Origin: a virus
Direction: 5' to 3' (one strand)
Virus record (IMG/VR): IMGVR_UViG_3300046007_007423
Coordinates: 1-20,862 of that record
Length of the DNA: 20,862 nt
Shown: positions 1 to 20,862 of the stretch, piece by piece
Layout of the letters: each line of letters starts with the position of its first letter
Numbering within the stretch: the stretch's first letter is position 1
Notes under the pieces: model-generated
What the model saw: the letters and a program-made list of their open reading frames with translations, nothing else
What the model was told of the DNA's origin: nothing
Database searches by the model: none
Position numbers and translations under genes: made by a program

Positions 1-42
1 AATCCTTATGAACCATTTGGTATGAGTGAGGTGAAGCCGTGA
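1..42 (+). CDS. 3' end of an upstream gene (partial)
   Basis: The first 42 bases read as an open frame of 13 residues (NPYEPFGMSEVKP) closed by TGA at 40-42. The stop overlaps the GTG start of the next gene at 39 in a GTGA arrangement, the tight coupling seen through the rest of this plus-strand cluster. The tail also contains GAGGTGAAG, a good Shine-Dalgarno sequence for the next gene, so it is very likely a genuine coding end. Too little is present to name the product. Confidence 0.6.
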   Translation, partial: NPYEPFGMSEVKP

Positions 43-248
43 CCACACCCCTAACACGCCAAGATGTCCTAGGCATCGTCCTAGAAGCCCTAGAGCTTCA
101 CGAGGCGAAGAAAGCCGATGCACACACCAAGCGGATTGTTGCAGAGTTTGAGAAGTCTCTTTCGTTTGGACTGCAGGAAGAGAAGTCACCGACAACAATG
201 TCACGAAAATCAGTAGTCCCTAAATCAGTAAGAAAGTGGAAAAAATGA
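39..248 (+). CDS. hypothetical small protein, 69 aa
   Basis: Unrecognised small hydrophilic protein. The GTG start at 39 is chosen because GAGGTGAAG lies just upstream and because it overlaps the stop of the preceding frame. The first 45 residues look helical and charged, with no hydrophobic segment. The last 20 are strongly basic (several Lys and Arg, ending WKK), which could suit nucleic-acid or membrane-surface contact, but this is inference. The TGA stop at 246-248 overlaps the ATG of the next gene (TGATG), so the two are probably translationally coupled. Confidence 0.6.
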   Translation: MTTPLTRQDVLGIVLEALELHEAKKADAHTKRIVAEFEKSLSFGLQEEKSPTTMSRKSVVPKSVRKWKK

Positions 249-601
249 TGTTTAACTGGTTGTACGAGTTCGGAACGATGTTGTGGCAAAACGGCACGGT
301 GTGCTTGATTATCGGCTACATGATTATCGGCTATGGTGCAGGGTGGGTGATTACAGGAACACAGCGTGGCAAGGATTACGGTCAAGTCGTTTTTCGAGTT
401 TCCACAAAAACAGAGAACGGCAAGGGGCTATTGAATACAAGCATTGCATGGGACGGTGTGCCTATGGATCCTACAAGACCACTTCGTCCTGTATTTAAAC
501 ATCACAGACACGCCATGCACGCCTTTGAGGATACAGTCCACCACCTTAAAAATATAAACGATTATTTTAATAACGAAGAAAAAGAGAAAGGGAAAGAATG
601 A
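248..601 (+). CDS. hypothetical single-span membrane protein
   Basis: The open frame begins at GTG 236, but ATG at 245 or 248 is a better start: 248 forms a TGATG overlap with the previous gene. The protein is about 117 residues. Residues of roughly 12-36 form one hydrophobic segment rich in Ile, Gly and Tyr; it contains two copies of an Ile-Ile-Gly-Tyr unit encoded by a 15-base tandem repeat. The remainder is hydrophilic: a probable beta region, a His-rich stretch, then an acidic and lysine-rich tail. This looks like a membrane-anchored protein with a cytoplasmic or periplasmic tail. No family recognised. Confidence 0.6.
   Translation: MFNWLYEFGTMLWQNGTVCLIIGYMIIGYGAGWVITGTQRGKDYGQVVFRVSTKTENGKGLLNTSIAWDGVPMDPTRPLRPVFKHHRHAMHAFEDTVHHLKNINDYFNNEEKEKGKE
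306..335 (+). repeat. 15-bp tandem duplication inside a membrane segment
   Basis: TGATTATCGGCTACA is followed directly by TGATTATCGGCTATG. The two units differ at two of 15 positions. The unit length is a multiple of three and keeps the frame, repeating Ile-Ile-Gly-Tyr in the predicted transmembrane helix. Confidence 0.75.
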
Positions 602-704
602 TGCCTACTTATTTAGTTGAAGGTGTCCGATCAAGAAAAAAGCAATTGTTTTTTCTTATTGGCGTCCCTTGCCGCAACCACCGCAGGAGGTGAGCCATGC
701 TTGA
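598..704 (+). pseudogene. DUF551-like 3' remnant, or short -1 frameshift gene
   Basis: A start ATGATG at 598-603 overlaps the previous stop and opens a short frame ending at 691-693. In that frame the codons AGA AAA AAG carry A-AAA-AAG at 636-642, the classic -1 slippery heptamer. A -1 shift there continues through 642-704 and adds a tail containing SYWRPLPQPPQEVSHA. This resembles the C-terminus of DUF551 proteins (HWMPLPEPP-like) and the end of the intact gene at 2392-2802 (THWMPFEPPQEVSHV). No start codon exists in the -1 frame alone after the TGA at 618-620. Either one base was gained or lost in a degraded duplicate, or a 34-residue frameshift product is made. The remnant reading is simpler. 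Confidence 0.5.
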
Positions 705-738
705 GTTTTTAAAGAAGTGGTTAAAGCCGAAAGAGAAG
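676..738 (+). repeat. 63-bp direct repeat, copy 1
   Basis: Matches 2774-2836 with three mismatches by my count. It covers the end of a DUF551-like frame, the Shine-Dalgarno CAGGAGGTGAG, the start codon and the first 14 codons of a small gene. Homology stops abruptly after the Lys-Pro-Lys-Glu-Lys codons. Confidence 0.9.
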
Positions 739-885
739 AAAGTGGAAATTAAGCACGATTGGATTTATTACACCCAAGGCACACATACGCCACAAAACCA
801 TGACGACATTTTGCAACACGTTCTAAATGAAACATGGAACTCTGACGACGGCACGTTTACATTTGAAGATAAGAAAGGCAACTAA
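697..885 (+). CDS. hypothetical small protein, 62 aa, LEFLKKW N-terminus
   Basis: Unknown function. ATG at 697 follows CAGGAGGTGAGCC, a near-perfect ribosome binding site. The first 14 residues (MLEFLKKWLKPKEK) are a short amphipathic, cationic helix nearly identical to the start of the 74-aa protein at 2795. After residue 14 the two sequences are unrelated. The rest is hydrophilic and acidic, with no cysteine and no membrane segment. The shared start with different bodies suggests module exchange or independent replacement of the 3' part. It stops one base before the next start. Confidence 0.6.
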   Translation: MLEFLKKWLKPKEKKVEIKHDWIYYTQGTHTPQNHDDILQHVLNETWNSDDGTFTFEDKKGN

Positions 886-886
886 A

Positions 887-1141
887 ATGCAAGAAATCAT
901 AACCGAAATACTGGAAATTCACGGCTTCCCTACGAAGAATGTGGAGAAATTAACGACCTTATTAGAAAATTGGAAACTTAAGGATTTAACAGCTCTCACC
1001 GTCATCACAAGCGACAAGCAAATTATGGGATTTTCTATGGGGAATCGCATAATCGCACTTGGGGGCATAGTGCCTACCTTTAGTCAAGAATGGCGTTACT
1101 GCTCCCTAGGCTCCGAGCTGGTGGTACGATTGAAAGGCGGT
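887..1141 (+). repeat. 255-bp direct repeat, copy 1
   Basis: About 93% identical to 3007-3261 (about 17 differences by hand count). The 3' third, from the GGGGGCATAG stretch to the AAAGGCGGTG junction, differs at only one base. Confidence 0.9.
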
Positions 1142-1147
1142 GAGTGA
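887..1147 (+). CDS. hypothetical protein, 86 aa, copy 1 of a duplicated gene
   Basis: ATG at 887 is chosen over an in-frame ATG at 827 because the duplicate at 3007 begins at the equivalent codon and because 827 lies inside the previous gene. The protein differs from the copy at 3007-3279 at only four of the first 85 residues. It has a helical N-half (residues about 1-35) and a hydrophobic, beta-like middle (DLTALTVITSDKQIMGFSMG) ending in KGGE. No family recognised. Of about 17 base differences between the copies, roughly 11 are silent, which suggests both copies are under constraint. Its last codons form the ribosome binding site of the ASCH gene. Confidence 0.65.
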   Translation: MQEIITEILEIHGFPTKNVEKLTTLLENWKLKDLTALTVITSDKQIMGFSMGNRIIALGGIVPTFSQEWRYCSLGSELVVRLKGGE

Positions 1148-1149
1148 TG
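1133..1149 (+). promoter_or_regulatory. junction ribosome binding site AAAGGCGGTGAG with TGATG overlap
   Basis: AAAGGCGGTGA matches the anti-Shine-Dalgarno complement AAGGAGGTGA with one substitution (C for A). It is read in frame as Lys-Gly-Gly-Glu at the end of the upstream protein, then the stop TGA shares bases with the next ATG. The same module recurs at four more junctions in this cluster. Confidence 0.7.
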
Positions 1150-1551
1150 ATAGCCATTAACTTTAAAGCCAAGTTTGCGGACTTGGTTGCCAGTGGTAAA
1201 AAGACGCAGACCATACGACAGACGAACCGTTTCAAAGTGGGGGATACACTACAGCTCTACACAGGGCAACGTACAAAGGCGTGTCGTAAATTGGGTGAAG
1301 CCGTTGTAAAAACAATTTTTAAAATTAGTATTACTGAAACAAATGTTGAGTATGCTAATCTTGACTATATTTCTGTTTGCGGAAAAGGACGTGAAAAATC
1401 ATTAGGTGGACGAGAATATCTATTAAATAACTTTGCCCAAAAAGACGGCTATAAGCTACGTATTATTGCAGACAAAGACGACCCCAAAACAGCAGACTAC
1501 CTCCGCCAGTTCACGCTTGAAGGCGTAAGAAAGGAAACGAAAGATGTTTAG
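1147..1551 (+). CDS. ASCH/PUA-like domain protein
   Basis: About 134 residues. The N-terminal pattern INFKAKFADLVASGKKTQTIR, then RFKVGDTLQLYTGQRTKACRKLG, is typical of ASCH (PUA-like, ASC-1 homology) proteins: a Phe/Lys strand, Ser-Gly-Lys-Lys-Thr-Gln-Thr-Ile-Arg, then Val-Gly-Asp with Leu-x-Leu. ASCH proteins fold as a beta barrel with a cleft thought to bind RNA or modified nucleosides, and small ones are common in phages. A catalytic role cannot be read here. The start is ATG 1147 (or GTG 1144 one codon upstream). It overlaps the next gene by eight bases. Confidence 0.75.
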   Translation: MIAINFKAKFADLVASGKKTQTIRQTNRFKVGDTLQLYTGQRTKACRKLGEAVVKTIFKISITETNVEYANLDYISVCGKGREKSLGGREYLLNNFAQKDGYKLRIIADKDDPKTADYLRQFTLEGVRKETKDV

Positions 1552-2026
1552 ACCAGTTACAATTACCCACCCAGTGGTGGTGAATGATGGTAAGCCGTTT
1601 GAGGCTATAGATTTGAACTCTGAAGCTTTTGACACGATATTAAGCGATGACCATTATTTTATGTATTTTTTGAATGAAAAAATCGGCGTAGTGGATACTT
1701 ACTATGATGCTTCTGTAGCCTACAGAAATATAATTTGGCAACTATCCCAAGCCCTGAATCAGCCTATCAAGGTGACGCAGGCGGTGCTGGAGGCTATGGA
1801 TCGAAATCGTGGCGGTAAGTATCTACATGTTCAGGAGAGTATGCACGGAATCCAAACAACTGAACTCTTTTGCCTCGAATCCATGGTGGAGACCTATGCT
1901 TTTCGACCTCTCCTCAACTGTTCACAGATAACTCTAAAAATCGGCGACTACATCCAAGCCGATTGCCCCCTCGCCTTGCAGGTGTTGCTAGGCTTTACAA
2001 CGGAAGGAGTGCTGAAAGATGCCTAA
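1544..2026 (+). CDS. hypothetical protein, 160 aa
   Basis: No family recognised. The start ATG 1544 lies inside the end of the ASCH gene and follows AAGAAAGGAAACGAA, a reasonable binding site. The protein is mixed acidic and hydrophobic with no transmembrane segment and no clear metal or nucleotide motif. Residues of about 70-100 look helical (WQLSQALNQPIKVTQAVLEA). The C-terminal third has beta character with three cysteines. It ends over the start of the next gene. Cytoplasmic accessory protein is the best that can be said. Confidence 0.6.
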   Translation: MFRPVTITHPVVVNDGKPFEAIDLNSEAFDTILSDDHYFMYFLNEKIGVVDTYYDASVAYRNIIWQLSQALNQPIKVTQAVLEAMDRNRGGKYLHVQESMHGIQTTELFCLESMVETYAFRPLLNCSQITLKIGDYIQADCPLALQVLLGFTTEGVLKDA

Positions 2027-2399
2027 CTTCCAAGAGCAACTGGAAGAAATCAAGCAAGCCTGTAGCTTCCCTGATTGGGACGGCTACGGTGCATTACCCC
2101 TGAACGAAACCTCTGTACGCTTGGCAAAGGAGTTTATTAAGCGGGTTATGGAACTTTACCCTGAATTACCTTACCCTGAACTTTGCCCCGAGCCTGACGG
2201 TTGCTTGGGATTTGATTGGAGGCAGAATCTACACCAGTTTGCGGTAAGTATAGATGCTCAATACTTGCTTTCCTATACTCACAGGCATCCTAACTACAAG
2301 TCGACATGTGGGGATATTGGCTACAATAAAAAGCAATCCCCTCTTTTACTAAAGCGTTATTTTGAATTATTGACAGGAAAGGACAATCCAAATGACTAA
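2019..2399 (+). CDS. hypothetical protein, 126 aa, WDGYGA motif
   Basis: Start ATG 2019 follows GGAAGGAGTGCTGAAAG. The layout resembles a widespread uncharacterised phage/bacterial family: an N-terminal helix, then PDWDGYGALPL near residues 18-28, a helix that opens with the alanine-lysine stretch, a proline-rich linker, then a PDGCLGFDW strand (PDG-x-hydrophobic-x-x-x-W) near residues 58-67 and further strands. The family link rests on remembered pattern and no biochemical role is known to me. Overlaps the downstream gene by eight bases. Confidence 0.6.
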   Translation: MPNFQEQLEEIKQACSFPDWDGYGALPLNETSVRLAKEFIKRVMELYPELPYPELCPEPDGCLGFDWRQNLHQFAVSIDAQYLLSYTHRHPNYKSTCGDIGYNKKQSPLLLKRYFELLTGKDNPND

Positions 2400-2802
2400 A
2401 CTAATGAAACAGCTCCAAGCGTGGGCGAATAAAGGCTGGTACACCTTTCCGTGTGAACAACATCCTGAAGGTGATTTTGATGGTGATGGCTGGGAGGATC
2501 TTTATAACATAGAGTCTAACTTTCGTTATAATTTAGCCGATGCCGTAGATTGCGTCCTAGACGGCACAATCCAAGTCTGGCGACCTGTGGAGCATTATCC
2601 ACTTATAGAAAATAACAAGCCTGTAATCCTATGGCGAAAAGGCATAAGAAACGGTATTGTTGCGGTATGGAGCCTTGAGTTTGGAAGCTGTTTTACAGAT
2701 TGTGAATGGCGGGATTTTAAGACTCAAGAAATCATAGAGGATATTGAAGACTATACCCACTGGATGCCATTTGAACCACCGCAGGAGGTGAGCCATGTTT
2801 GA
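2392..2802 (+). CDS. DUF551-like protein, 136 aa
   Basis: The C-terminal half has the DUF551 layout: WRPVEHYPLIENNKPVILW (tryptophan, then Pro, then a strand ending in a Val-Ile-Leu core) and, about 60 residues later, THWMPFEPP. DUF551 proteins are short phage-associated proteins of unknown function. The N-terminal 60 residues, with CEQHPEGDFDGDGWED, are outside that domain and include an acidic Asp-Gly-Asp-Gly stretch. Start ATG 2392 overlaps the previous stop. Its last eight codons contain CAGGAGGTGAG, the binding site of the next gene. The end matches the remnant at 642-704. Confidence 0.6.
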   Translation: MTKLMKQLQAWANKGWYTFPCEQHPEGDFDGDGWEDLYNIESNFRYNLADAVDCVLDGTIQVWRPVEHYPLIENNKPVILWRKGIRNGIVAVWSLEFGSCFTDCEWRDFKTQEIIEDIEDYTHWMPFEPPQEVSHV

Positions 2803-2836
2803 GTTTTTAAAGAAATGGTTTAAGCCGAAAGAGAAG
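2774..2836 (+). repeat. 63-bp direct repeat, copy 2
   Basis: Partner of 676-738, with three mismatches. Here it covers the true 3' end of the DUF551-like gene and the start of the 74-aa gene. Confidence 0.9.
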
Positions 2837-3019
2837 CCTGTTAAGTACACCATCACGATTGGGGGAAACTGGTGTGGCTTGATGAGGTTAGAATCGGTTA
2901 AACGATGCGGTAGGGATTTTGACCTTTCTGATGAGTTTAGTAAAGCAGTTCGTCCTTTAATTATACATTTATGCACTATGGAAAATACACCAAAGGAATG
3001 TGACAAATGCAAGAAATAA
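2795..3019 (+). CDS. hypothetical small protein, 74 aa, FEFLKKW N-terminus
   Basis: Shares the cationic amphipathic start (MFEFLKKWFKPKEK) with the 62-aa protein at 697, then diverges completely. The body has four cysteines, three of them in the C-terminal half, two forming a CDKC pair near the C-terminus (residues about 70-73), which could bind a metal together with other Cys, but that is speculative. No family recognised. ATG 2795 lies behind CAGGAGGTGAGCC. The final codons overlap the start of the duplicated gene at 3007. Confidence 0.6.
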   Translation: MFEFLKKWFKPKEKPVKYTITIGGNWCGLMRLESVKRCGRDFDLSDEFSKAVRPLIIHLCTMENTPKECDKCKK

Positions 3020-3261
3020 TCACCGAAATACTGGAGAGGCACGGTTTCCCAACGAAGAATGTGGAGAAATTAACGACCTTATTAGAAAACTGGAAGCTTA
3101 AGGATTTAACAGCTCTCACAGTCATCACAAGTGACGAGCAAATTATGGGGTTTTCTATGGGGGGTCGAATAATCGCACTTGGGGGCATAGTGCCTACCTT
3201 TAGTCAAGAATGGCGTTACTGCTCCCTAGGCTCCGAGCTGGTGGCACGATTGAAAGGCGGT
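3007..3261 (+). repeat. 255-bp direct repeat, copy 2
   Basis: Partner of 887-1141. The distance between partners is 2120 here and 2098 for the 63-bp repeat, so the non-homologous stretch between the two repeat segments is 22 bases longer in copy 2. Confidence 0.9.
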
Positions 3262-3279
3262 GGAGGGGTGGTGTTATGA
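3007..3279 (+). CDS. hypothetical protein, 90 aa, copy 2 of a duplicated gene
   Basis: Near-identical to the gene at 887. Differences in the first 85 residues are Ile/Arg, Lys/Glu, Asn/Gly and Val/Ala. The C-terminus differs: instead of KGGE and stop, the frame runs on through GGGGVVL. The Shine-Dalgarno region is extended (AAAGGCGGTGGAGGGGTGG), with GGAGGGG now closer to the next start. Only four bases (ATGA) overlap the next gene, as against the TGATG pattern at other junctions. Function unknown; retention of two copies with mostly silent changes suggests both are used. Confidence 0.65.
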   Translation: MQEIITEILERHGFPTKNVEKLTTLLENWKLKDLTALTVITSDEQIMGFSMGGRIIALGGIVPTFSQEWRYCSLGSELVARLKGGGGVVL

Positions 3280-3497: not shown

Positions 3498-3499
3498 TG
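3480..3499 (+). promoter_or_regulatory. junction ribosome binding site, second occurrence
   Basis: AAAGGCGGTGAAGCGTGATG. The spacer is three bases longer than in the first example, adding one alanine after Lys-Gly-Gly-Glu in the upstream protein. Confidence 0.65.
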
Positions 3500-4384: not shown

Positions 4385-4401
4385 TATAATAAAAGCAACG
4401 C

Positions 4402-4471: not shown

Positions 4472-4930
4472 CTAATAAGGCACGTCCCGATCCGCTCCCT
4501 TGTCATTGTGAACGAATCCCTTGGCACGGTTGATACCTAAGCCACCGTTCCAAAAGATACGGTACTTCTTATACTCCGCAACCGTGGGGAGAGAGCCATC
4601 TGTAAACTGCCAGTCCACCGCTAGCCCTGTCATGTGCCACGAGTTAGGGTGTCCACCAATACGTTCGTTGTGAGAAGGCACACGCAACCACGATGTGACA
4701 CGCATGGGGCGTTTCCAATACGCCCTAGCCTTCTCCATTTCCAACGCCATAAGGTAGGCGTTTTGAAGCATCTTGAGGGTGACTTCTTTCCACTCGTTCG
4801 GCTGAATACTCCCAAACACTTCACGCCATGTGAAGTTGGTCGTGATGTTTCGCTTCGCCAGCAGGTCGTAATCCTTCGACTTGATGAGCGAAAAGGCGGA
4901 TGCTACGGTGAGTAGGTTTTTAGCGTTCAT
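4472..4930 (-). CDS. endolysin, M15-family D,D/L,D-type peptidase
   Basis: 152-residue single-domain protein. It carries the zinc-peptidase M15 signature Ser97-Trp-His99-x-x-Gly-x-Ala-x-Asp106 (SWHMTGLAVDW) and a later His141 in GFVHND after a GGLGI turn, giving the two His and one Asp of the metal site. The preceding VTSWLRVPSHNERIGG segment is also typical (Arg, then Asn, then Gly-Gly). Such enzymes cleave peptide bonds in the peptidoglycan stem and act as phage endolysins. There is no signal peptide or cell-wall-binding domain, so a membrane-lesion protein should release it. It is the last gene of the minus-strand cluster, overlapping the membrane protein upstream by four bases (ATGA). Confidence 0.88.
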   Translation of the reverse strand: MNAKNLLTVASAFSLIKSKDYDLLAKRNITTNFTWREVFGSIQPNEWKEVTLKMLQNAYLMALEMEKARAYWKRPMRVTSWLRVPSHNERIGGHPNSWHMTGLAVDWQFTDGSLPTVAEYKKYRIFWNGGLGINRAKGFVHNDKGADRDVPY

Positions 4931-6246: not shown

Positions 6247-7023
6247 TTAGTCTCCTATTAGTGGTGGGCGGTTACGGAAGGGATGCGAGGCGGGTGGTGT
6301 TTCAATAAGCCGACCGTTTTTCCAATATAAATATCCTTCCATTAACTCAATTTGCCTATCGGTTGCGGCATAAGGCAAAATTAAAAGGTCTCGCATTCTA
6401 CCTATAAAAGTATTCGGGTCTGGACCAAATCCAACAAACAAAGCACCTGTGCTTGTTGTGGTCGTTGCTGTGATTCCTCCTGAAGCGGCTAGCACACCAT
6501 TTACACGCAGTATTGATTTTGTTGAGGCGTTGCCGTCAAATCTCCATACAATTATATAATTTGTGTTTGTTGCAATCGTTGTGCCTATAGTCTGACCGTT
6601 TAAAACCGCTAACAAATCGGCTCCAATAACAACTAATCCTGTTCTAGCCGTAGGGGTAGTGGTTCCATGTTCAAAAAACCACCCTGTTGCTGTTTGATTG
6701 ATTACCGCAAACGCTGTAAATGCCGTAGTGGTGACAAGGGGTGTAAAAGAAGCAGTGCCTACTAAGCGTTGAGTTGAGGCTGTAAACCCAACAGAAGGGG
6801 TGTTATTCCACCCCCCTGCTTGATAAGCAGGGCGAAGCCCAGCAGTTGATTGAGTAAACGACCAAAGTCCATCAGAATCATTCCATTGTGAAACCGCACC
6901 GCTAGCAACCGTAATGTTTTTTTGTGCGTCTAAGTTTAGACCCCTTCGTATTATTTCAGGGTTTGGTGTCCACAATCGCCCCTGTAGTCGTGCTTCATCG
7001 TATGTGTTAAAACCACGGGGCAT
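6247..7023 (-). CDS. concanavalin A-like (LamG-type) tail protein
   Basis: 258 residues. It opens with a short MPRGFNTYDEARLQGRLWTP leader, followed by the beta-sandwich pattern of LamG/concanavalin A-like tail proteins: a leading LNLDAQ strand, VSQWNDSDG, RPAYQ, then PSVGFTASTQRLVG, strands in the middle, and GRMRDLLILPYAATDRQIELMEGYLYWKNG with a final SHPFRNRPP, matching the usual 'EGYLAWKW...HPY..PP' end. Such proteins usually bind glycans or act as virion surface adhesins. No catalytic residues are evident. It follows the 137-aa tail protein with a one-base overlap. Confidence 0.75.
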   Translation of the reverse strand: MPRGFNTYDEARLQGRLWTPNPEIIRRGLNLDAQKNITVASGAVSQWNDSDGLWSFTQSTAGLRPAYQAGGWNNTPSVGFTASTQRLVGTASFTPLVTTTAFTAFAVINQTATGWFFEHGTTTPTARTGLVVIGADLLAVLNGQTIGTTIATNTNYIIVWRFDGNASTKSILRVNGVLAASGGITATTTTSTGALFVGFGPDPNTFIGRMRDLLILPYAATDRQIELMEGYLYWKNGRLIETPPASHPFRNRPPLIGD

Positions 7024-11831: not shown

Positions 11832-14800
11832 TTATAAAGCTTTTCCATAGCCTCGTGCGAGCCAGTCGACTAAGTGAGTATGACTACCTCCGCCATGATG
11901 CACATAGACATCAAAGGATGAACTTGTGACATTGGTAATTTCTAAGTATTCATTGGCTCGAAAGTTTAACGGCGTAACCTGAATGTTAGGACGTGCCTTA
12001 AACGGTACGCTAAACGTAACGGTGCTAGTCCCTGTTGGCAAATTTACCGCATTGGCAGATTCTAAGCGGTCGGGCATATCGCAAGTGACGCTTAACGTAG
12101 TAACCGTAGGGACTTTAGACTGCAAGAATGAACGCATCACAAGGCGGAATCTAAACGCCCTCGCTTCATAATCCCCTGCGTTTAAGGTTGACCACGCTCC
12201 AAATGAGACGTTATCGGTGGATGTTGCCACTTGAAGCTCAAGCATCCCCTGCGTGTATTCAATGAAGCCGACATCAAGAACGCTAGACAAAGAAGCGAAA
12301 TCGACGACATCGGCGATTGTGTCGCTATCCACTGTTGCCATTGTTGGCTCAAGTGATATATTTGGCATGAAAGATACCCATGAAGAGGTATCGCCCATGA
12401 CAAAATCAACAGTGCCTGTTAATCGTGAAACATAAACATCGCCCAAGTCGATTGAATTATCAAACTCGTAATAAGCGGTATCCGTCACTAAGGGGTCGTC
12501 AATAATTAAGCCGTCAGGAATTACAATACACCCTGTTTTTGTGCCTGCAAACGTGGGATGCTCGTCTATTGTTTCCACGACGTTAATGTTAATATCGGGC
12601 GACGTGAACGTCACACGGCTTGCATCAATAGTGCTATAGGCTCCGTAAAAATCCTTTGCTTTAATAAAGAATGTTCCGTCTTGATAAGGAATTGTTAAAG
12701 TAGTATTCTGTGTAAATGTCAAGAAAGGCGTTAAATCCCACGCCGTACTTACCTTGCTTGGTGTGTAGCGGATCTCGTAGCCGTCTAAGTCATTATCTAA
12801 AACGGCATCCCATGTAAAAATCAAATCCCCTCCAACGATTGAGTAGTTGAAGTTCTGCACATTCGCAGGGGCTAGGTTATTTTCCGCAAAGTCAATCGTA
12901 GCGGTAACGCTTCCCATGGCTCTGTTTTCGCTGGCTGTGGCTTGAATGGCATCCACTCTAATATCAAGGAGATTGTCGGTAATGGCTAAATCATAGACGG
13001 AGCTTGCGGTCTCGCCTGCATAGGTGTAATTCTCGCTAGTGGGAAGCTTCCAATAAACCGCATACCGTGTGATGCGTCGATCGGGCGATGCCGTCCATGT
13101 AAGCAATAAACGCTTCACTCGCACGCCGTCTAAGTTCTCAAAGAAACCCACGCCCTTTAAGTTGCTATGTAGGTAAACTTCCTGACCGATTAAGGTTGTC
13201 GGTGTTTTGCCTGTGACGATGCCACGCTCGATGCGGTCGTACTTGGTGCGGTCGTACTCAATGGCGGATATTTCATACTGGAACTTTTCTTGATCCGTAA
13301 GCTCTCTTTTGCCAATGACGTAGAACTCTCGAGGGGCAAGGTTTGACGCATTAACCCCCCAAATGCTATGTAACGCAGGCGTGTTGTCGTCTAGGTCGGG
13401 TTCATCCCCTACACTAACGGTTAAGGGGGTATCAAAGCGGATATATTGCACATTGCCATAAGTAACAACGCCGTTTTGATTACACGGCTTGATAACACGC
13501 TCCCTTAGTGAGCCGTCACGCATCATAACGTACATGGTGTAAGTCTGCAAGGCGTCAAAGAACACATTGCTGTCTAAACGGATTCCTTCATAACCTGTTG
13601 AGCCTATGTCGTCATAAAAAGCTTTTAAACGTCCACTTTGACGCAGGGTTTGAAAACTGGGGTCGTAGATCCCGATAACGTCCCCAATGGTTATCTCTGC
13701 ACCCTCTAAACCAGTGGTGAAGCCCACGGTTTGATACTGATTCTTTTGAGTGTCTAACAACCAAGCCCCATAGCGTCGGGCTTGTCCTTCAGATGTACAC
13801 CCAATAGAAGCGACGCTGGCTTGTTGATAGCCAAAAAGTTCAATCAAATAAGGATCTTCAACGGTAACGGTTGCCTGCTCGTATAGATTGCTAGGATCGT
13901 TCCACCGCACTTGAGCCACACTCGACGTAGTGTCAACGGATGCCGTGGCATACTGAAACGTCACACCGTCCGAATTAACGACGTTTGCCTGTGAGAACAC
14001 CGCTACAGGGTCTTTCGGCATATCCGCCGTTAGAATAATAACATCGTTGGCACTGTAAACCATGCCATGAAAGACGGATGCCACCTTGTTGACAATATCG
14101 TAAAAGCTCTCGTTATTCGCAAACCAGTAATTAAACGTGTAGCGTGGCTCCATGGCTCTACGCCCTGCTACAGGCACCAGCTCATCGCAGTATTTTGCCA
14201 CCTCGTAAAAGCTGTACTTGTCGATCTGTGACGCACTGATAAAATGACCGCCACCATACCGCTGGTTTGTGAGGATGTCATAAAGCACCCATACAGGGTT
14301 ATTCGTCCAAGCGGTTTGAAACGTGCCGTTCCAATAGCCTAGTGGCTCGTCATAAAGCCGTGTAATCGGGTCGTAAGTGATTGGGATTTTAACCTTTACG
14401 CCGTCGATTAAATAGCCACGCTTAGGAAGGTTATTGCCAAATAGGGAAGCGTCAATCTTAATGCCTGCAATGGCTCTATTCGCATAGGTGAGCTTGGTTT
14501 CCACGCCTTCGGCATACGCTGACCAATATAAATCGTTTTGCAAGTAGGGGCTGTTACTGTCTTCTGTTACCCTTGTCACCTTTATATCCCACGGACTGCC
14601 TCCATTGTCTTTAGGGAGCAATACCAAGTATTCACGCTCATAGGTTGATGCGGTACGTCCTGAAATAACGGTGTCCTTGTTGACCAGTTCGTAAATCTCT
14701 GATACCGTCCAACCACTAGGGGGGGTGATGCGATACTGCCCTTGTGCAAGCCCTATAATTTCATCATCCAATTTGTACCATAAGCCGTATTGTGATTTTG

Positions 14801-15554
14801 TGGAGATCCCCCCACTTTCCATTTTAAGATTTTGGCTAATGAAATTGACCGTGCCGTTGTAGCCTTGCGTCGGATTATAAACCGTGTATCCTGTCGGTTC
14901 AATGCTATAATTTTCAGTAACATTTGAGCCACTAGGCATGAGCTTATAAACCAATGACGGCGTTTCTATATTGTCTAAAAAGTAATCTTGGCTAGGGCTA
15001 TCAACACGCTTGGTAAGCACCACTCTAAAGCCCCTAGCGGTGCTAGATGTCAACCATTGACCAGCCGTTTGGTTGATGCGTTGCCACACACGCCCAAACT
15101 GCTTATAGCCTGTCTCGCTCTCGTTGACTTCGATTTTAAAGGCGACGCTCTGCCTCAATACATCACCAGTGCTTGTGTCTTGAAATTGCAAGGCAGGCAC
15201 GGCGATTTTGATACGCACATAATCGGCATCGGGGTTTGTAATGGTGCGAATCACAGGGGAGGCTTGCAATACCTTAACGCCTACACTCACCAAGCTTTCC
15301 ACACCGCCAAAGCCTTGTATTTCGGTTTGGTCTGTTTCGCCCAGCCGTGATTGAAACTCTACCCCCTGAAAGTTGAAGCTCCCATTGGCGTTTTGTAACG
15401 ATGTGTCGTTAAAATAGACGCTGTTTAAGCCGTTGACCAAGCCTTTTATTTCGCCCTCTGAAATGACTTCAAGGATCCGTGCGACGTTATTCGCCTGTAA
15501 ATCAATAGGCGACGATACAGGCGTTCTTGATTGTGGCTTGCTTGACCCACCCAT
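11832..15554 (-). CDS. J: tail tip attachment protein J (host specificity)
   Basis: About 1240 residues. Start ATG 15554 is chosen over 15605 because it forms a TAATG overlap with the stop of I and begins MGGSSKPQSRTP, the usual J start. The N-half has the J features: ARILEVISEGEIKGLVNG early, later GCTSEGQARRYGAWLL and GLEGAEITIGDVIGIYD, the GpJ-type core. A fibronectin III-like segment (TWDAVLDNDLDGYEIRY) follows near 900. The C-terminus is beta-rich and ends in DWLARGYGKAL, a terminal motif common on J-like tips, preceded by a His cluster. J sits at the tail tip and binds the receptor. Confidence 0.9.
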   Translation of the reverse strand: MGGSSKPQSRTPVSSPIDLQANNVARILEVISEGEIKGLVNGLNSVYFNDTSLQNANGSFNFQGVEFQSRLGETDQTEIQGFGGVESLVSVGVKVLQASPVIRTITNPDADYVRIKIAVPALQFQDTSTGDVLRQSVAFKIEVNESETGYKQFGRVWQRINQTAGQWLTSSTARGFRVVLTKRVDSPSQDYFLDNIETPSLVYKLMPSGSNVTENYSIEPTGYTVYNPTQGYNGTVNFISQNLKMESGGISTKSQYGLWYKLDDEIIGLAQGQYRITPPSGWTVSEIYELVNKDTVISGRTASTYEREYLVLLPKDNGGSPWDIKVTRVTEDSNSPYLQNDLYWSAYAEGVETKLTYANRAIAGIKIDASLFGNNLPKRGYLIDGVKVKIPITYDPITRLYDEPLGYWNGTFQTAWTNNPVWVLYDILTNQRYGGGHFISASQIDKYSFYEVAKYCDELVPVAGRRAMEPRYTFNYWFANNESFYDIVNKVASVFHGMVYSANDVIILTADMPKDPVAVFSQANVVNSDGVTFQYATASVDTTSSVAQVRWNDPSNLYEQATVTVEDPYLIELFGYQQASVASIGCTSEGQARRYGAWLLDTQKNQYQTVGFTTGLEGAEITIGDVIGIYDPSFQTLRQSGRLKAFYDDIGSTGYEGIRLDSNVFFDALQTYTMYVMMRDGSLRERVIKPCNQNGVVTYGNVQYIRFDTPLTVSVGDEPDLDDNTPALHSIWGVNASNLAPREFYVIGKRELTDQEKFQYEISAIEYDRTKYDRIERGIVTGKTPTTLIGQEVYLHSNLKGVGFFENLDGVRVKRLLLTWTASPDRRITRYAVYWKLPTSENYTYAGETASSVYDLAITDNLLDIRVDAIQATASENRAMGSVTATIDFAENNLAPANVQNFNYSIVGGDLIFTWDAVLDNDLDGYEIRYTPSKVSTAWDLTPFLTFTQNTTLTIPYQDGTFFIKAKDFYGAYSTIDASRVTFTSPDININVVETIDEHPTFAGTKTGCIVIPDGLIIDDPLVTDTAYYEFDNSIDLGDVYVSRLTGTVDFVMGDTSSWVSFMPNISLEPTMATVDSDTIADVVDFASLSSVLDVGFIEYTQGMLELQVATSTDNVSFGAWSTLNAGDYEARAFRFRLVMRSFLQSKVPTVTTLSVTCDMPDRLESANAVNLPTGTSTVTFSVPFKARPNIQVTPLNFRANEYLEITNVTSSSFDVYVHHGGGSHTHLVDWLARGYGKAL

Positions 15555-16174
15555 TACAACACCTCTTCCGTCGTGATTGATTGACTTATGACGTTTGACC
15601 CACAATAGAAACGCCCATACGTTACAGGCACACCCACGCCTTTACCTAGCCGATTCGTTGCACCAGTAAAAAGGGTACTTTGGCGATCTGCTGGATTGTC
15701 CCCTTGTTGCAAGTCGCCTACTTTGGGCGTGGGTGTGAATAGCGTCACAATACCCCCTAGAACGGACGTAGCACCCCCCACAATTAAACCAACGCCGATA
15801 CTTGCCAATTGAGTACCTGACAAGGTTCCTAAGCCTCCAGTCATAAACGTGAGAGCAATCCCTGCCCCAATTAGTAGCACACCTGCAATAATGCCGATAA
15901 ACTTCTTTCCATAAACGCCCTCCACTGGCACAAGGTGAATCGTATCGACGCCATCGGGCAAACTTACATCAAAACGTGAATCTTCTGAAAGCAAACGGCT
16001 TCTACCGTCACTCGTTAGGCTGAACCGATACCAACCACGTTTTAGCATTTGACGCATCCCTTTAAAGGTGCGTAAAAGAAAGGAAACCACTTGTTGAGCG
16101 GTTTCCGCATTTATCCGCAGGGGATTAGGGGAAAGGGTCTTTAATTTTCCGTGAAGCACAACCGATACAAGCAT
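15554..16174 (-). CDS. I: tail assembly protein I
   Basis: 206 residues, in the lambda position between K and J. The N-terminal half has FLLRTFKGMRQMLKRGWYRF and a DTIHLVPV strand, followed by a glycine-rich hydrophobic segment (GIIAGVLLIGAGIALTFMTGG, residues about 93-115) and a second one near 122-145, typical of gpI. The C-terminal part has GKGVGVPVTYGRFYCGS, also usual. gpI is needed for tail tip assembly and may not stay in the virion. ATG 16174 has GGGAGGG nearby. Confidence 0.85.
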   Translation of the reverse strand: MLVSVVLHGKLKTLSPNPLRINAETAQQVVSFLLRTFKGMRQMLKRGWYRFSLTSDGRSRLLSEDSRFDVSLPDGVDTIHLVPVEGVYGKKFIGIIAGVLLIGAGIALTFMTGGLGTLSGTQLASIGVGLIVGGATSVLGGIVTLFTPTPKVGDLQQGDNPADRQSTLFTGATNRLGKGVGVPVTYGRFYCGSNVISQSITTEEVL

Positions 16175-16188: not shown

Positions 16189-16896
16189 TTACATTGTAAC
16201 CTTTAAAAGCATGTGCAAGCGTTCCATGCTAGCGTGGACTGGCGTTAATCGACTTACTCCGTTCATAGGATGATGAAGCATTAAACCGTCGCCCACATAA
16301 ACGCCTGCGTGTTCACCTTGACGCCCTACACGAATCACAATCAAGTCGCCATTTTCTAAAGGGCTGTCCAGTGCTTTAATCTCGCAAAGCCCTTGATGAT
16401 TAAGTGTATAATAGTAACCATTTTTGTCGTAAAAATCTCTAGGAATAATAGGGAACTCATAACCCTTATTGAGTCTATACCAGTCGGCGATAATCGCAAA
16501 GCAATCGCCCTTTCCGTCGCTTCCATAATCACCCCAGCGATACGAACGCCCTAGTAAGCTTTCCTCTGTCGCCTGAATCGACGAATGCCAAAATACAGGA
16601 TTCACCACGTCGCTATGACTGCAATAGTTCATTATCCCCTGTGGCTTATCACTAGAAGCAAACATCTGCATATCAAGCATGGACGGCACTAAAGGCTGAT
16701 GCGACGGTATGGGGTGCGTGTGCAAGTAAGCCTCTGCCCCTTCAATCATAGAGCCGTCTACAAACTCCTCATTACCTACTTTTACCAAATGCCACACGTC
16801 GCCGATTTTGGCGAATAAATGCTCGTTCTTTAAATCATCGGCGGATCGTGCCATAAGTTGCATGGTGACGTGTTGACGGTCTGCATCGTTAAACAT
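16189..16896 (-). CDS. K: tail tip protein K, JAMM plus NlpC/P60 peptidase
   Basis: 235 residues. N-terminal JAMM/MPN part: His59-x-His61-Pro, then Ser72-x-x-Asp75, the metal site of the family. C-terminal NlpC/P60 part: Cys132 in GDCFAI after SYRWGDYG, His186 in GEHAGVYVGDG, and His198/His199 after it, the catalytic order. Lambda K has the same two-domain plan and is thought to act at the tail tip on the cell wall. Both catalytic sites look intact. Two bases separate it from the L stop. Confidence 0.9.
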   Translation of the reverse strand: MFNDADRQHVTMQLMARSADDLKNEHLFAKIGDVWHLVKVGNEEFVDGSMIEGAEAYLHTHPIPSHQPLVPSMLDMQMFASSDKPQGIMNYCSHSDVVNPVFWHSSIQATEESLLGRSYRWGDYGSDGKGDCFAIIADWYRLNKGYEFPIIPRDFYDKNGYYYTLNHQGLCEIKALDSPLENGDLIVIRVGRQGEHAGVYVGDGLMLHHPMNGVSRLTPVHASMERLHMLLKVTM

Positions 16897-16898
16897 GG

Positions 16899-17588
16899 TT
16901 ACGCCTCACTAAAATTAGGGAACCCATTAAAGGGAACCGCCGTTTCAAAACGTGCCTCACAACCGCCTACCGTCTTACTACAGCGATCTAGGGCTTGCGT
17001 CGTGACTTCGTTAAACTCGTCGAAGTATTGCGTCCCTGCGTAAGGGCAAGGGTTGACATCGGCGATGACAAAGCTGGACGTATCCGCATTCCAACGGCGA
17101 TAGATGTGATTGCAATAGTTCACCATTTGGTTTTTAGGGAACTGCTGACGGTTTGCTAGCTCCATTGCCGTTATTAGCTCGAACTCAATAGCGACGCTTG
17201 TTTGGCTTGTAATTTGGTTAATATAAAACGTGTCATAGTTCACGAACTCATCCGTAATTGTAGGGGTGATGTCGTCTAACTCATTTCGTCTTACACGAAT
17301 CCTTGTAAACTTACAGTTCTGCAAGCCCCTGTATTCGTTGATGCCACCAATAAGCAACGCTTGCAAGTTCGACACTACAAACGTCGGACGTGGGGCTTTT
17401 CCGCTTTCAATCTCGAAGCCTTGAGCATCAATAGGAAACGCCGTGTAAGTGTTGCCGTTAAACACAATGTTTGTACGGTTTTCGTGGCATGAAGGGCTTA
17501 GGTAAATAATCCCACCGCCATAAATAGCCGTGTCGATTTGGTACAGGGTGACAACAGAGCCAAAGCTAGGGAGTTGAGCATCAAGCAA
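16899..17588 (-). CDS. L: minor tail protein L
   Basis: The open frame reaches back to 17726, but the part before 17588 overlaps M heavily. A TTG at 17588 (nine bases after GGGAGG) gives 229 residues, close to lambda L at about 232, so I prefer it; this start is not certain. Landmarks: VVTLYQIDTAIYGGG, NGNTYTAFPI, GKAPRPTFVVSN and a C-terminal Cys set (YCNHIYRR, NPCPYAG, ALDRCSKTVGGC). Lambda L is reported to bind an iron-sulfur cluster through four C-terminal cysteines, and the final Cys-x6-Cys matches. Role: tail tip assembly. Confidence 0.85.
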   Translation of the reverse strand: MLDAQLPSFGSVVTLYQIDTAIYGGGIIYLSPSCHENRTNIVFNGNTYTAFPIDAQGFEIESGKAPRPTFVVSNLQALLIGGINEYRGLQNCKFTRIRVRRNELDDITPTITDEFVNYDTFYINQITSQTSVAIEFELITAMELANRQQFPKNQMVNYCNHIYRRWNADTSSFVIADVNPCPYAGTQYFDEFNEVTTQALDRCSKTVGGCEARFETAVPFNGFPNFSEA

Positions 17589-17937
17589 GGTCAAACACCT
17601 CCCTAAGCTTAAAGGTGACATTCCACAAGTTTGCATCCATGCCTGTAACCTGTATCGGATCTTGACACACCCACAATCTAGCGGATGCTTCACTAGGAAG
17701 TGTGTAATAAAAAGATTCAACCCCACCGTATCCGTTTAAGTCGTCAACAAGATCGTTCTTTTCCGTGGCAGTCAATACGGCACACGTCAACGTCACGTTT
17801 AGAATCTTAAAGTTGATACCGTCCGCTACCCTTTGCTCGTAGCCGTCGCCAAACTTGGCGGTTTGCACACGGTACGCTGTTTCTTCGGTGTAGCCACTTT
17901 GGCTAGGGGTTACTGGTAAGGTGAGGGTTGAAGGCAT
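17581..17937 (-). CDS. M: minor tail protein M
   Basis: 118 residues. It has the Phage_min_tail pattern: TAKFGDGYEQRVADGINF near residues 26-43, a strand set after it, and FYYTLPSEASARLWVC. In lambda, M sits at the tail tip next to L and H. Its end overlaps the L start by eight bases, and its ATG abuts the unknown 113-aa gene (one shared base), suggesting coupled translation. Length is near the family's usual 110. Confidence 0.88.
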   Translation of the reverse strand: MPSTLTLPVTPSQSGYTEETAYRVQTAKFGDGYEQRVADGINFKILNVTLTCAVLTATEKNDLVDDLNGYGGVESFYYTLPSEASARLWVCQDPIQVTGMDANLWNVTFKLREVFDLA

Positions 17938-18278
17938 TATTCACGCTCCAAAAGTAGCAATGATATTTTCAAATAATCCAATGGAGTGTCTTCACCTTCA
18001 AAGCTTGTGATATGTGCAAGCTCAACAACATCCCTGATAGGATGATACGGAGGATTAAAGGCAACCTCTGTGTATCTGTCTGTGGTTAATTCAGTTTGAA
18101 AAAACTCTACCGCTTTTTCATGTGATTCAAACGCCTGTGCTGTAATTGAGGTATAAATATCATCATATTTTACCCATACGTCAAAAGACCTTCCTTGCAA
18201 ACTAAAATCTACTTCTGAAAGAATGTATTTTTTAAACCTTAATTGTGCTGGATTTTCGATGTTCATTCTCTTTTTCAT
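17937..18278 (-). CDS. unknown protein between tape measure and M, 113 aa
   Basis: Not part of the standard lambda order, in which M follows the tape measure gene H directly. The start forms TAATG with the tape measure stop (18276-18280). It starts MKKRMNIENPAQLRFKKY, then strands (FSLQGRSFDVWVKYDDIYTS), a helix (SHEKAVEFFQTELTT) and a hydrophobic tail (LDYLKISLLLLERE). It may be a tail-tip partner or an inserted accessory gene; local base composition does not look unusual by eye. No family recognised. Confidence 0.6.
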   Translation of the reverse strand: MKKRMNIENPAQLRFKKYILSEVDFSLQGRSFDVWVKYDDIYTSITAQAFESHEKAVEFFQTELTTDRYTEVAFNPPYHPIRDVVELAHITSFEGEDTPLDYLKISLLLLERE

Positions 18279-20761
18279 TATGCGAATCCCCTTTGTAACA
18301 TTCCGCCTTGACGGCTTTCCGTCTTAAGGACTTGTCTAACCTTCATTTCAATCATTTCACTAATTGCCTTCCCTGCTTCTGCTAAGCCTTGATTATCGCC
18401 CTTGCCTCCGCCTTGCGTGTTAACCGTCACGTTGTTAATGACTGTAATACCACCACCGCCACCACCGCTAGGCATAGCGTGGTTAGGGATGATGTTCCCT
18501 GCGGATCGTGGCACAAACATTTCACGCCCTGCCTCACCCACCATGTAAGGCTTGTTTGCGGATACCGCTCCACCGCCTGCACGAGCACCAAAACCACCAC
18601 TTAATTGAGGAGCATTTTTTGGTATTACTGGCACTTCAAAAACTTTACCTATTTTGTCAAAAACCCCTGTCAATTTACCGCCAAAGGCTCCTGAATTAGC
18701 TCCGCCTGTTTGACCACCGCCTACAATACCCATTAAAAGCTGTAACGTATAAACTTTAATTAACTGCACCGCCACTTGACGCAATAGCCCCACCATAATG
18801 TCCTTGAAGGAAGCTGTACCATTAACCATGTGTTCAATTGTATTATCAAACGCAGAACGTAAGGCATTGCGGATCCCCTCCCCTGCCTGCTTGGCACTTT
18901 CTACCATTTGATCCGTTGTGCTTTGATAATCCTTTAAGCCTTGCTCACGTTTTGCTTGCTCTTCCGCTTGCTTCTTCTGCTCATCCGTGGCGTTGGAACC
19001 TTTAAGCAAGTCACGTTTACGCTGTTCAATATCTAGTTCACGCTGTTTGAGTTCAAGGGCTTTTTCACCACCTGCAAGGAACGCATCACGCAAGGCTTTC
19101 TGTTTCGCCTCTTCAATGTTTGCTTCTTCCATAGCCTGCTTTAAGCTTACACTCAATTCAAGCTGTTTCTTTTTGGCTTCGGTGTCCTGCTCACGCTTGA
19201 CAATGCCTTGAGCCAGCAGTTCAAGCTCACGTTTACCCTTGCCTAAGTAATCGCCCATAAGCTCGTTGTAACGCCCTAAGCCCTCGTTTTGCTTAAGCTG
19301 TGCCTCGTAGGCTTTGATACCACCACTAGACAAGGCTTGAATGGCTTTATCCATGCCTTGCACTTCAAGCATGGCATCCCTAGCTTTTTCTTTTAAACCC
19401 TTGAGTGCATCGGCGTAACGCTCGGCTTCTTTTTGGGCTTCAGATTCACCCTCTTTTGCTTTCTTCCCCTTGCCTGTTTTACTTAAAGGGGTTTCAACTG
19501 TGCCTCGAATATCCCTAGGAATAGGCATCGATCTTTGCACTTTAGGGGCTTTAAACTCATTTCCGATTTGCTGAAAGTCCGTGCCTGCGTCTTTAAAAAA
19601 GCCTTTTCTTGTATTCTTGGCAACATCTAAAGCAAACTCTAAGCCACCTGTGGGGACTGCAAGCTTGCCAAATGACAACGCTTTTAATATCTGATTCCCC
19701 TTGTTGGCAACACGCACAATAGAATCTAGCGTTGCCTCAACAACAAAAGAGATAGCCCCCAAGATGCTACGAACCAATGCTTGTACAACGTTTACGGTGG
19801 ATCTAAAGAACACAACCAAACCGCTACCCAATGCGACCCACCCCTGTCTATTATCTTCTAAGCTCTTTAAAATAGAACCAAGCGACCGCAATAGTGAACC
19901 GCTAGCATCCGTTGATTTATCAATGTCCGCCACCAATGATGCAAAGGTAATATCCGCCTGCGACTTCAACCGCCCAAACGTCATAGGCATTTTGTCGAAC
20001 TCTTTGTTGACATCATCCGCCTGCTTGATGAGTACGTCGAACACGTCCTTTGAAAGGAGCTTGCCTTCAATAACCATAAGCCTTAACTTGCCTATTGAAA
20101 TACCTAAGCCTTCAGCAATTTTAAGAGCAATTTCGGGCGTGTTTTCCACAATGGAGTTAAACTCTTCGGCTCGCACAATACCGCCAGCCATAGCCTGCGA
20201 GAACTGCACTAAGCTGTTTTTAATGGCTTCACCACTGGCTCCACTCAATACGCCAAGCTTTGAGACGGTATCCGTCAACACCAACATTTCGGCGTTCGTC
20301 GCACCGATGCTATTTTTTGTGTTAGATATTCTCTGAAAGACGGTTACGATGCCTTCAAGGCTTGTACCTGTGCTAATGGCGACTTTCTTTAAGGCTTCAA
20401 AGTTTTGCGTGCCTAGTGCAATACCCTTGCTTGCGTTGATCGTGCGTGCTTCTAATAGACGCATCTTGTCGGCTGTATCGGCTATGTATTTTACTGTATT
20501 GATAGAAACATAGGCGACAACTGCTTTTTTTAGATTATCCATTGCACCTGAAAGCATGGATGTTTCTTTTTTCGCTCTTCTTGTGGTATCTTCAACCTTC
20601 TTGGTTTGCTCGGCGATCTGTTGCAAGCGTAAGTTTGTTTGATTGCCACTTGCCACCAACGCATCAAGGGCTTTTTTAAAGTCGTTTGTTTGGGCTTTTG
20701 CCTGTTGTGTCCCCTTGGCTTCAACCTCAACGGTGACTTTAGGATTGTCCGCCATCATCAT
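18278..20761 (-). CDS. H: tape measure protein
   Basis: 827 residues. An N-terminal charged helix (1-80) leads into the tape measure N-terminal domain (about 90-275) with LLEARTINASKGIALGTQNF and IVRAEEFNSIVENTPE. A hydrophobic segment lies at about 308-345 (GLVVFFRSTVNVVQALVRSI). A long lysine/glutamate-rich coiled coil follows, then the lambda-type C-terminal segment (FDNTIEHMVNGTASFKDIMV) and a glycine-rich end with YMVGEAGREMFVPRSAG. It sets tail length and may be ejected into the cell. ATGATGATG at 20761 follows AGGAGG by nine bases. By simple proportion the tail should be short to medium. Confidence 0.92.
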   Translation of the reverse strand: MMMADNPKVTVEVEAKGTQQAKAQTNDFKKALDALVASGNQTNLRLQQIAEQTKKVEDTTRRAKKETSMLSGAMDNLKKAVVAYVSINTVKYIADTADKMRLLEARTINASKGIALGTQNFEALKKVAISTGTSLEGIVTVFQRISNTKNSIGATNAEMLVLTDTVSKLGVLSGASGEAIKNSLVQFSQAMAGGIVRAEEFNSIVENTPEIALKIAEGLGISIGKLRLMVIEGKLLSKDVFDVLIKQADDVNKEFDKMPMTFGRLKSQADITFASLVADIDKSTDASGSLLRSLGSILKSLEDNRQGWVALGSGLVVFFRSTVNVVQALVRSILGAISFVVEATLDSIVRVANKGNQILKALSFGKLAVPTGGLEFALDVAKNTRKGFFKDAGTDFQQIGNEFKAPKVQRSMPIPRDIRGTVETPLSKTGKGKKAKEGESEAQKEAERYADALKGLKEKARDAMLEVQGMDKAIQALSSGGIKAYEAQLKQNEGLGRYNELMGDYLGKGKRELELLAQGIVKREQDTEAKKKQLELSVSLKQAMEEANIEEAKQKALRDAFLAGGEKALELKQRELDIEQRKRDLLKGSNATDEQKKQAEEQAKREQGLKDYQSTTDQMVESAKQAGEGIRNALRSAFDNTIEHMVNGTASFKDIMVGLLRQVAVQLIKVYTLQLLMGIVGGGQTGGANSGAFGGKLTGVFDKIGKVFEVPVIPKNAPQLSGGFGARAGGGAVSANKPYMVGEAGREMFVPRSAGNIIPNHAMPSGGGGGGITVINNVTVNTQGGGKGDNQGLAEAGKAISEMIEMKVRQVLKTESRQGGMLQRGFA

Positions 20762-20862
20762 GTTGTGAAGCCTCCTGCGTCATCATTAAACGGTCTATCA
20801 ACATTATAAGCTTAAGCTCGTCTCGGTTGTATGCCACCCCAAACAAGCGATGCCACGCCTCA
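20739..20862 (-). CDS. 3' end of the gene upstream of tape measure (partial)
   Basis: One minus-strand frame is open from the window edge to TAA at 20739-20741 (40 residues; first codon at 20861). It reads EAWHRLFGVAYNRDELKLIM, then LIDRLMMTQEASQHDDGGQS. It overlaps the tape measure start by 23 bases and contains its AGGAGG binding site. In lambda-like phages this position is held by the tail assembly chaperone (G/GT), so that is the likely identity, but the fragment alone does not prove it. Whether it is made by frameshifting cannot be seen here. Confidence 0.6.
   Translation of the reverse strand, partial: EAWHRLFGVAYNRDELKLIMLIDRLMMTQEASQHDDGGQS

What the first reader, a model, noticed from the sequence alone, without database searches (positions are those of the whole stretch)
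1..20862. All four G/C-only palindromic tetramers appear to be absent
Reading the plus strand line by line I found no GGCC, CCGG, GCGC or CGCG. These are their own reverse complements, so one strand suffices. With roughly 45% G+C, composition alone predicts some 40-50 of each. GC and CG dinucleotides, and GCG, CGC, GGC and GCC trinucleotides, are common, so this is not simple CpG loss. Other palindromes such as CTAG, GATC, CATG and GTAC are present. Loss of all four suggests the phage lineage has faced restriction enzymes cutting these sites (types like HaeIII, MspI, HhaI, FnuDII) and purged them. It could help identify the host. The count was by eye, so a few could be missed.
Basis: seen in the sequence. 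Interest (0 to 1): 0.75.

Follow-up and report, generated by a model that had tools for sequence, protein, structure and literature searches.

The report
Phage purged of many restriction sites
An uncultured bacterial virus and its relatives have lost nearly every copy of about a dozen short DNA words that bacterial restriction enzymes cut, more than in the comparison phages examined here, which makes the gaps a readable trace of the defences of a still unknown host.

Summary
Confirmed. GGCC, CCGG, GCGC and CGCG each occur 0 times in 20,862 bases; 76, 39, 50 and 42 are expected, and 46, 31, 41 and 36 in the coding part when synonymous codons are shuffled with proteins fixed. CGNCG, the one G/C-only palindrome of these forms not avoided, has no enzyme in the REBASE copy used; 0 of 120 non-palindromic tetramers are lost. 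Most of these words are missing in all three lineages found (32 contigs with the window), which differ in others (GATC, GTSAC, GCNGC, RAATTY), as different host enzyme sets would leave. No cytosine-5 methyltransferase was found in 12 records. Best explanation: selection by many Type II restriction systems of an unidentified host; the enzymes are inferred. Such avoidance is well known; the breadth is unusual: 7 of 32 short palindromes eliminated, against 0-3 in 13 hand-picked isolate phages.

The parts
1..20862 (.). Whole window: GGCC, CCGG, GCGC, CGCG, CCNGG and CTSAG absent; GGNCC, GCNGC, RAATTY, YACGTR, GDGCHC and ACGGG/CCCGT nearly absent
   Evidence: Counts and expectations
6247..7023 (-). 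Virion structural protein gene that holds the densest group of residual words (GCGGC 6365, GGACC 6422, GCGGC 6485, ACGGG 7015, with TCTGG 6419)
   Evidence: Positions; PHROG match phrog_10356, E 1.3e-15. Clustering P 0.01 in 500 random placements for the window, but not below 0.1 in any of nine other records
671..1462 (.). Three further residual words: GCCGC 671, AAATTC 915, TACGTA 1457
12040..12045 (.). Residual RAATTY word AAATTT, inside the tail-tip gene
18583..18588 (.). Residual GDGCHC word GAGCAC, inside the tape-measure gene
11832..15557 (-). J-type tail tip (central tail fibre) gene, used to find relatives and to test ongoing selection
   Evidence: phrog_31 E 5.1e-203; alignment A2; substitution test
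15554..16174 (-). Tail assembly protein
   Evidence: phrog_32 E 3.6e-31
16189..17937 (-). Three minor tail protein genes
   Evidence: phrog_30, phrog_18, phrog_14
18278..20761 (-). Tape measure protein gene, used to find relatives
   Evidence: phrog_339 E 7.1e-56; relatives
4472..4930 (-). Endolysin of the M15 peptidase kind
   Evidence: phrog_894 E 9.2e-19; PF08291 E 1.4e-13

Best explanation
The window is part of an uncultured tailed-phage genome whose lineage has been purged by natural selection of the recognition sites of many host Type II restriction-modification systems, and is still kept clean of them. DNA that enters a restricting host is cut if it carries unmethylated sites; genomes with fewer sites survive, so mutations that remove sites are kept and mutations that create them are lost, mostly at synonymous positions. 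The avoided set (GGCC, CCGG, GCGC, CGCG, GGNCC, CCNGG, GCNGC, CTSAG, RAATTY, YACGTR, GDGCHC, ACGGG/CCCGT) records the specificities that the lineage has met. Shown: the absence of the words, its specificity, its independence of protein content, its conservation, and differences between lineages. Inferred: that host restriction enzymes with these specificities are the cause, and that the host or host population holds roughly a dozen of them.
For: Absence against Markov and codon-shuffle expectation. Avoided words are enzyme sites: in a scan of 617 REBASE sites the strongest depletions are GGCC, GCGC, CCCG, CGCG, CCGG, ACGGG, GCNGC, RAATTY and CTCAG; CGNCG, without an enzyme in that copy, is not depleted (66 seen, 60 expected); 0 of 120 non-palindromic tetramers eliminated. 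Same core words lost in 32 contigs of three lineages, 416,194 bases counted, with lineage-specific differences: GATC 2/137 and GTSAC 1/39 in D, 511/1100 and 536/619 in A; GCNGC 195/156 in C but 35/1000 in A; RAATTY 18/466 in A but 60/121 in D. Ongoing selection: of 738 synonymous differences in the J gene, 25 would make an avoided word where 90 are expected. No cytosine-5 methyltransferase family match in 12 of 12 records examined.
Against: No host is known and no restriction gene has been matched. Some avoided words (ACGGG, CCAGA, CCATC) are asymmetric, and PMC6286503 finds avoidance mainly for orthodox Type II sites. Control G/C words in the substitution test were also fewer than expected (49 against 74), so part of that deficit is general. 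Transition neighbours of the four words are somewhat enriched, which decay would also give. Milder depletions without a clear restriction reading exist (AATT 108/173, CGTA 163/242).
Confidence: 0.92

Rival explanations
1. Mutational decay: the phage DNA is methylated at these cytosines by host enzymes, and deamination of 5-methylcytosine (C to T) erodes the words without any cutting.
For: Transition neighbours of the four words are 1.15 times expectation and transversion neighbours 1.01 (1.08 if CCCG, itself avoided, is left out; my arithmetic) in window plus G001; AGCC 353/234, ACGC 311/248, CACG 278/213 and GCAC 208/176 are above expectation.
Against: GACC (107/144) and CCAG (135/165), products at the inner cytosine of GGCC and CCGG, are below expectation. 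Complete absence, and loss of AT-containing words such as RAATTY, do not fit decay. A modest transition excess is also what ordinary point-mutation escape leaves.
Confidence: 0.03
2. Relic: the words were purged in an ancestor and are merely inherited; there is no selection now.
For: A sub-lineage (G002) shows partial return of GCGC (16/96), so some words do relax.
Against: Lineages at 53-56% identity in J still lack the core words, and within lineage A synonymous changes that would make avoided words are 25 against 90 expected. Without selection the words would have come back.
Confidence: 0.02
3. The phage itself makes nucleases of these specificities, for instance to destroy host DNA, and clears its own sites.
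For: Early genes are largely unannotated, so such a gene could be hidden.
Against: A dozen specificities would be needed in a genome of perhaps 40-50 kb. Proteins of relatives that were scanned matched methyltransferases, RusA, an exonuclease domain and a PDDEXK-like domain (DUF3799), none of them a restriction enzyme family (only 10 proteins there).
Confidence: 0.02
4. A structural or compositional rule disfavours G/C-only palindromes.
For: The four tetramers and three of four gapped words are G/C-only.
Against: CGNCG is not avoided, 0 of 120 non-palindromic tetramers are eliminated, and AT-containing words are lost too (RAATTY, YACGTR, CTSAG).
Confidence: 0.01

Closest known systems
Restriction-site avoidance in prokaryotic viruses (Rusinov et al. 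2018, PMC6286503; parts 1-3 of 5 and passages seen)
   Same: Elimination (observed at most a tenth of expected, more than 15 expected) of Type II recognition words from a dsDNA phage genome.
   Different: Breadth: about a dozen words here. That paper reports elimination in 7.1% of Type II site-genome pairs and in about a tenth of viral genomes, and says GCNGC tends to be over-represented in phages; it does not, in the parts I saw, state how many words one phage can lose at once.
Known multi-word avoiders in my panel (Bacillus phage phi29; cyanophages Mic1, Pf-WMP4, A-4L; Helicobacter phage KHP30)
   Same: Two eliminated tetramer palindromes and one gapped palindrome each; GGCC and GGNCC are shared by four of the five.
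   Different: 3 of 32 short palindromes eliminated in each, against 7 in the window and 5-8 in ten stretches of its relatives.
Multispecific cytosine-5 methyltransferases of the Bacillus SPbeta-group phages (recalled, not from a call)
   Same: As I recall, they protect GGCC, GCNGC, CCGG, CCWGG and GDGCHC, a list that overlaps this one.
   Different: Those phages modify the sites and keep them; here the sites are removed, and PF00145 had no match in 12 records.

Membership tests
Restriction-site avoidance | Strong under-representation of specific short words against composition | tested here: met
Restriction-site avoidance | Independent of encoded proteins and codon usage | tested here: met
   Codon shuffles
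Restriction-site avoidance | The avoided words are recognition sites of known restriction enzymes, while comparable words are not avoided | tested here: met
   All 7 eliminated short palindromes have enzymes; 22 of the 32 short palindromes do; CGNCG has none and is not avoided
Restriction-site avoidance | Cognate restriction-modification systems occur in the hosts | not testable with these tools
   Host unknown
Restriction-site avoidance | More typical of non-temperate phages | tested here: inconclusive
   No tyrosine integrase (PF00589) in 12 records, but these are fragments, and other integration routes were not tested
Protection by phage-encoded cytosine-5 methylation | Phage-encoded cytosine-5 methyltransferase (PF00145) | tested here: not met
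   0 of 12 records; 10 of 14 control genomes positive. N6/N4-type methyltransferases (PF01555) are in 5 of 12
Protection by phage-encoded cytosine-5 methylation | Recognition words kept in the genome | tested here: not met
   Words absent

The most novel reading that the evidence does not exclude
This lineage is among the broadest restriction-site purges of any phage group: about a dozen recognition words lost together, possibly including asymmetric ones (ACGGG/CCCGT, CCAGA) of a kind reported to be rarely avoided, without a cytosine-5 methyltransferase. Each sub-lineage carries its own fingerprint, so the missing words can be read as a census of the restriction enzymes of an unidentified, restriction-rich host population.
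Probability: 0.4. Interest if true: 0.65.

Novelty: new member of a known kind. Interest (0 to 1): 0.48.

Why it matters
Restriction-site avoidance is classical, but so many words erased at once, with different sets in sister lineages, is a natural experiment. The fingerprint predicts the Type II repertoire of the hosts before they are known, could help match phage to host, and bears on how far a phage can go by losing sites instead of modifying its DNA. It also speaks to why some bacteria accumulate many restriction systems while phages shed sites one after another.

Tried and rejected
Host search. A near-identity search of GenBank phages with the whole window gave no match. The major capsid protein of relative G002 had none. 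J, portal, terminase and annealing protein gave only matches below 60% identity; J matches are mainly phages of Pseudomonadota, but portal and terminase matches also include many actinobacterial phages. J in plasmids likewise gave only matches below 60%. Pattern scans of the 84,980-species genome collection, which are not exhaustive, found no relative with the tail-tube profile and one with the J profile, a Haemophilus quentini prophage at 36%, which has no eliminated word. The tail-tube profile matched 14 of 398 sampled genomes of that phylum, weakly. A DNA search with window 4400-20862 against 369 genomes of the class gave 3 short marginal matches that I take for chance. My memory that several of these samples are lakes comes from no call.

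Cyanobacterial host: bloom-formers are rich in restriction systems (PMC8262939, abstract and passages). Three of four cyanophages in the panel lack GGCC, GGNCC and GATC, but none shows the full set. Not supported by protein relatives, not excluded.

Clustering of residual words as a mark of recently acquired genes: P 0.01 in the window, but 0.102 to 0.998 in nine other records, so not pressed. Deamination, relic, phage nuclease and structural explanations: see rivals.

Literature: searches listed no paper that I recognised as reporting this set of avoided words; only listings were seen except for PMC6286503 (parts 1-3 of 5, and passages), PMC8262939 (abstract, outline, passages) and PMC8190135 (one passage).
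Full report
WHAT IS THERE. The window is a whole 20,862-base virus record. On the minus strand it encodes a lambda-like tail module: tape measure (18278-20761), minor tail proteins, tail assembly protein and a J-type tail tip (11832-15557), then tail-fibre and virion proteins and an M15-peptidase endolysin. Small genes on the plus strand fill 1-4384. A second record, IMGVR_UViG_3300046010_005515 (G001, 26,123 bases), overlaps it by 11,723 bases without a mismatch and extends it through the head genes to the terminase; the two together cover 35,262 bases. No GenBank phage matches the window at the DNA level.

THE OBSERVATION. GGCC, CCGG, GCGC and CGCG are each absent; 76, 39, 50 and 42 are expected from the window's own trinucleotides. 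Permuting synonymous codons with every protein held fixed gives means of 46, 31, 41 and 36 in the 17,079 coding bases tested, and never fewer than 17 in 200 shuffles. In the 14,400 bases that G001 adds there is one CCGG and none of the other three.

THE PATTERN IS LARGER. Scans of other words and of 617 REBASE sites against codon shuffles show more. Window, seen and expected: GGNCC 1 and 57, CCNGG 0 and 45, GCNGC 3 and 60, CTSAG 0 and 20, RAATTY 2 and 33, YACGTR 1 and 30, GDGCHC 1 and 37. In the genes of the window plus the new part of G001 the asymmetric words ACGGG/CCCGT (1 of 54), CCAGA (4 of 43) and CCATC (15 of 58) are low, and CCCG as a whole is reduced (36 of 133). Many sites in that scan are nested (CCWGG in CCNGG, for example), so I count about a dozen separate words. 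CGNCG, the remaining G/C-only palindrome of these forms, is not avoided (66 seen, 60 expected) and is the only one of the eight without an enzyme in the REBASE copy. Of 120 eligible non-palindromic tetramers none is eliminated. This word-by-word match to enzyme sites speaks against composition or DNA shape.

RELATIVES. Searches with J, tape measure, capsid, tail tube and portal proteins gave, with the window, 32 contigs that I sorted by identity, without a tree, into a near lineage A (25 contigs, 329,642 bases), C (1 contig, 27,618) and D (6 contigs, 58,934). Twelve more distant contigs found through J alone (34-40% identical) were left out of these counts; six of them were examined and at most one word was eliminated in each. 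J of C and D is 53% and 56% identical to the window's. Seen over expected in A, C and D: GGCC 10/1136, 1/127, 0/128; CCGG 9/559, 0/67, 0/92; GCGC 30/819, 3/109, 1/87; CGCG 19/655, 4/79, 1/59; GGNCC 4/853, 2/97, 0/87; CCNGG 7/618, 1/83, 1/107; GDGCHC 12/561, 2/82, 0/62; YACGTR 26/466, 4/43, 4/73; CTSAG 11/291, 8/40, 1/47. Other words differ: GCNGC 35/1000, 195/156, 11/178; GATC 511/1100, 11/82, 2/137; GTSAC 536/619, 1/41, 1/39; RAATTY 18/466, 1/19, 60/121. Two contigs of A from sample 3300049893 also lack GTSAC (0/9 and 0/17). Totals within A are not independent: the contigs are close kin, the stretch shared by the window and G001 is counted twice, and one contig was counted over 10,803 of its 11,170 bases.

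SELECTION IS ONGOING. Between the window's J gene and those of seven relatives there are 738 distinct single-base synonymous differences. In the window's context 25 of them would make an avoided word, where 90 are expected from all possible synonymous changes; for control G/C words the figures are 49 and 74, so part of the deficit is general. The eight genes hold seven avoided words in all.

COMPARISON. In stretches of up to 20,862 bases, 7 of 32 short palindromes are eliminated (at most a tenth of 12 or more expected) in the window and 5-8 in ten stretches of its relatives, against 0-3 in 13 isolate phages, 0 in the Haemophilus quentini prophage and 0-1 in six other virus contigs. I chose the isolates, several because their hosts are rich in restriction systems, and in low-G+C phages some G/C words are too rare to qualify, so the panel is illustrative only. 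PMC6286503 (parts 1-3) reports elimination in 7.1% of Type II site-genome pairs and in about one-tenth of viral genomes.

MECHANISM. Selection by host Type II restriction is the best account (0.92). Shown: the losses, their match to enzyme sites, the codon control, persistence across diverged lineages, differences among lineages. Inferred: that host enzymes are the cause and that the host population holds many of them. Self-methylation at cytosine-5 was looked for and not found in 12 records; 5 of the 12 carry an N6/N4-type methyltransferase. No tyrosine integrase was found in the 12, which fits the report that elimination is rarer in temperate phages, but the records are fragments.

DEAMINATION. 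Transition neighbours of the four words are 1.15 times expectation in window plus G001, transversion neighbours 1.01, or 1.08 without CCCG (the last figure is my arithmetic). Products at the inner cytosine of GGCC and CCGG are below expectation (GACC 107/144, CCAG 135/165), while AGCC, ACGC, CACG and GCAC are above. Decay alone does not explain zero counts or the loss of AT-containing words.

HOST. Unknown. J relatives lie mainly in phages of Pseudomonadota and weak tail-tube relatives occur in 14 of 398 genomes of that phylum, which makes it likely but not certain. Genera with five or more genomes average 2.17 restriction systems per genome, with a 95th percentile of 4.4, and Microcystis about 16 (PMC8262939, passages). 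A dozen purged words therefore implies an unusually rich host or several hosts with different systems.

VERDICT. The phenomenon is known; this is an unusually broad example with lineage-specific fingerprints.

Noticed in passing
window 885-1142 and 3005-3262: A 258-base stretch is repeated at 93% identity; it carries most of two related small proteins of unknown function (reading frames 827-1147 and 3007-3279).
   Followed up: no
window 1144-1551: Small protein with an ASCH domain (PF04266, E 1.1e-05) among otherwise unmatched small proteins.
   Followed up: no
G003:22034-24280 (L031:2034-4280), G005:9876-11024, G007:4955-6028: Relatives carry an N6/N4-type methyltransferase gene next to the portal gene; in G003 the reading frame is about twice as long (748 against 382 aa), with the methylase match split in two by an insert that looks intein-like by eye. 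Pfam and NCBIfam reported no intein family at E 0.001.
   Followed up: partly
G008 (L034, L035) and G009 (L036, L037): These lineages have further low words of their own: GTYRAC 0 of 25 in G008; AAGCTT 0 of 11 and GGNNCC 2 of 29 in G009. G008 also has a D12-class adenine methyltransferase match (PF02086).
   Followed up: partly
whole window: CTAG is not depleted (64 seen, 53 expected; 49 against 35 in the codon shuffle), although, as I recall, it is rare in many gammaproteobacteria; a possible host clue.
   Followed up: no
window 9140-20862 and G001:1-11723: Two records with different numbers share 11,723 bases without a mismatch, so the same phage genotype was assembled twice.
   Followed up: partly
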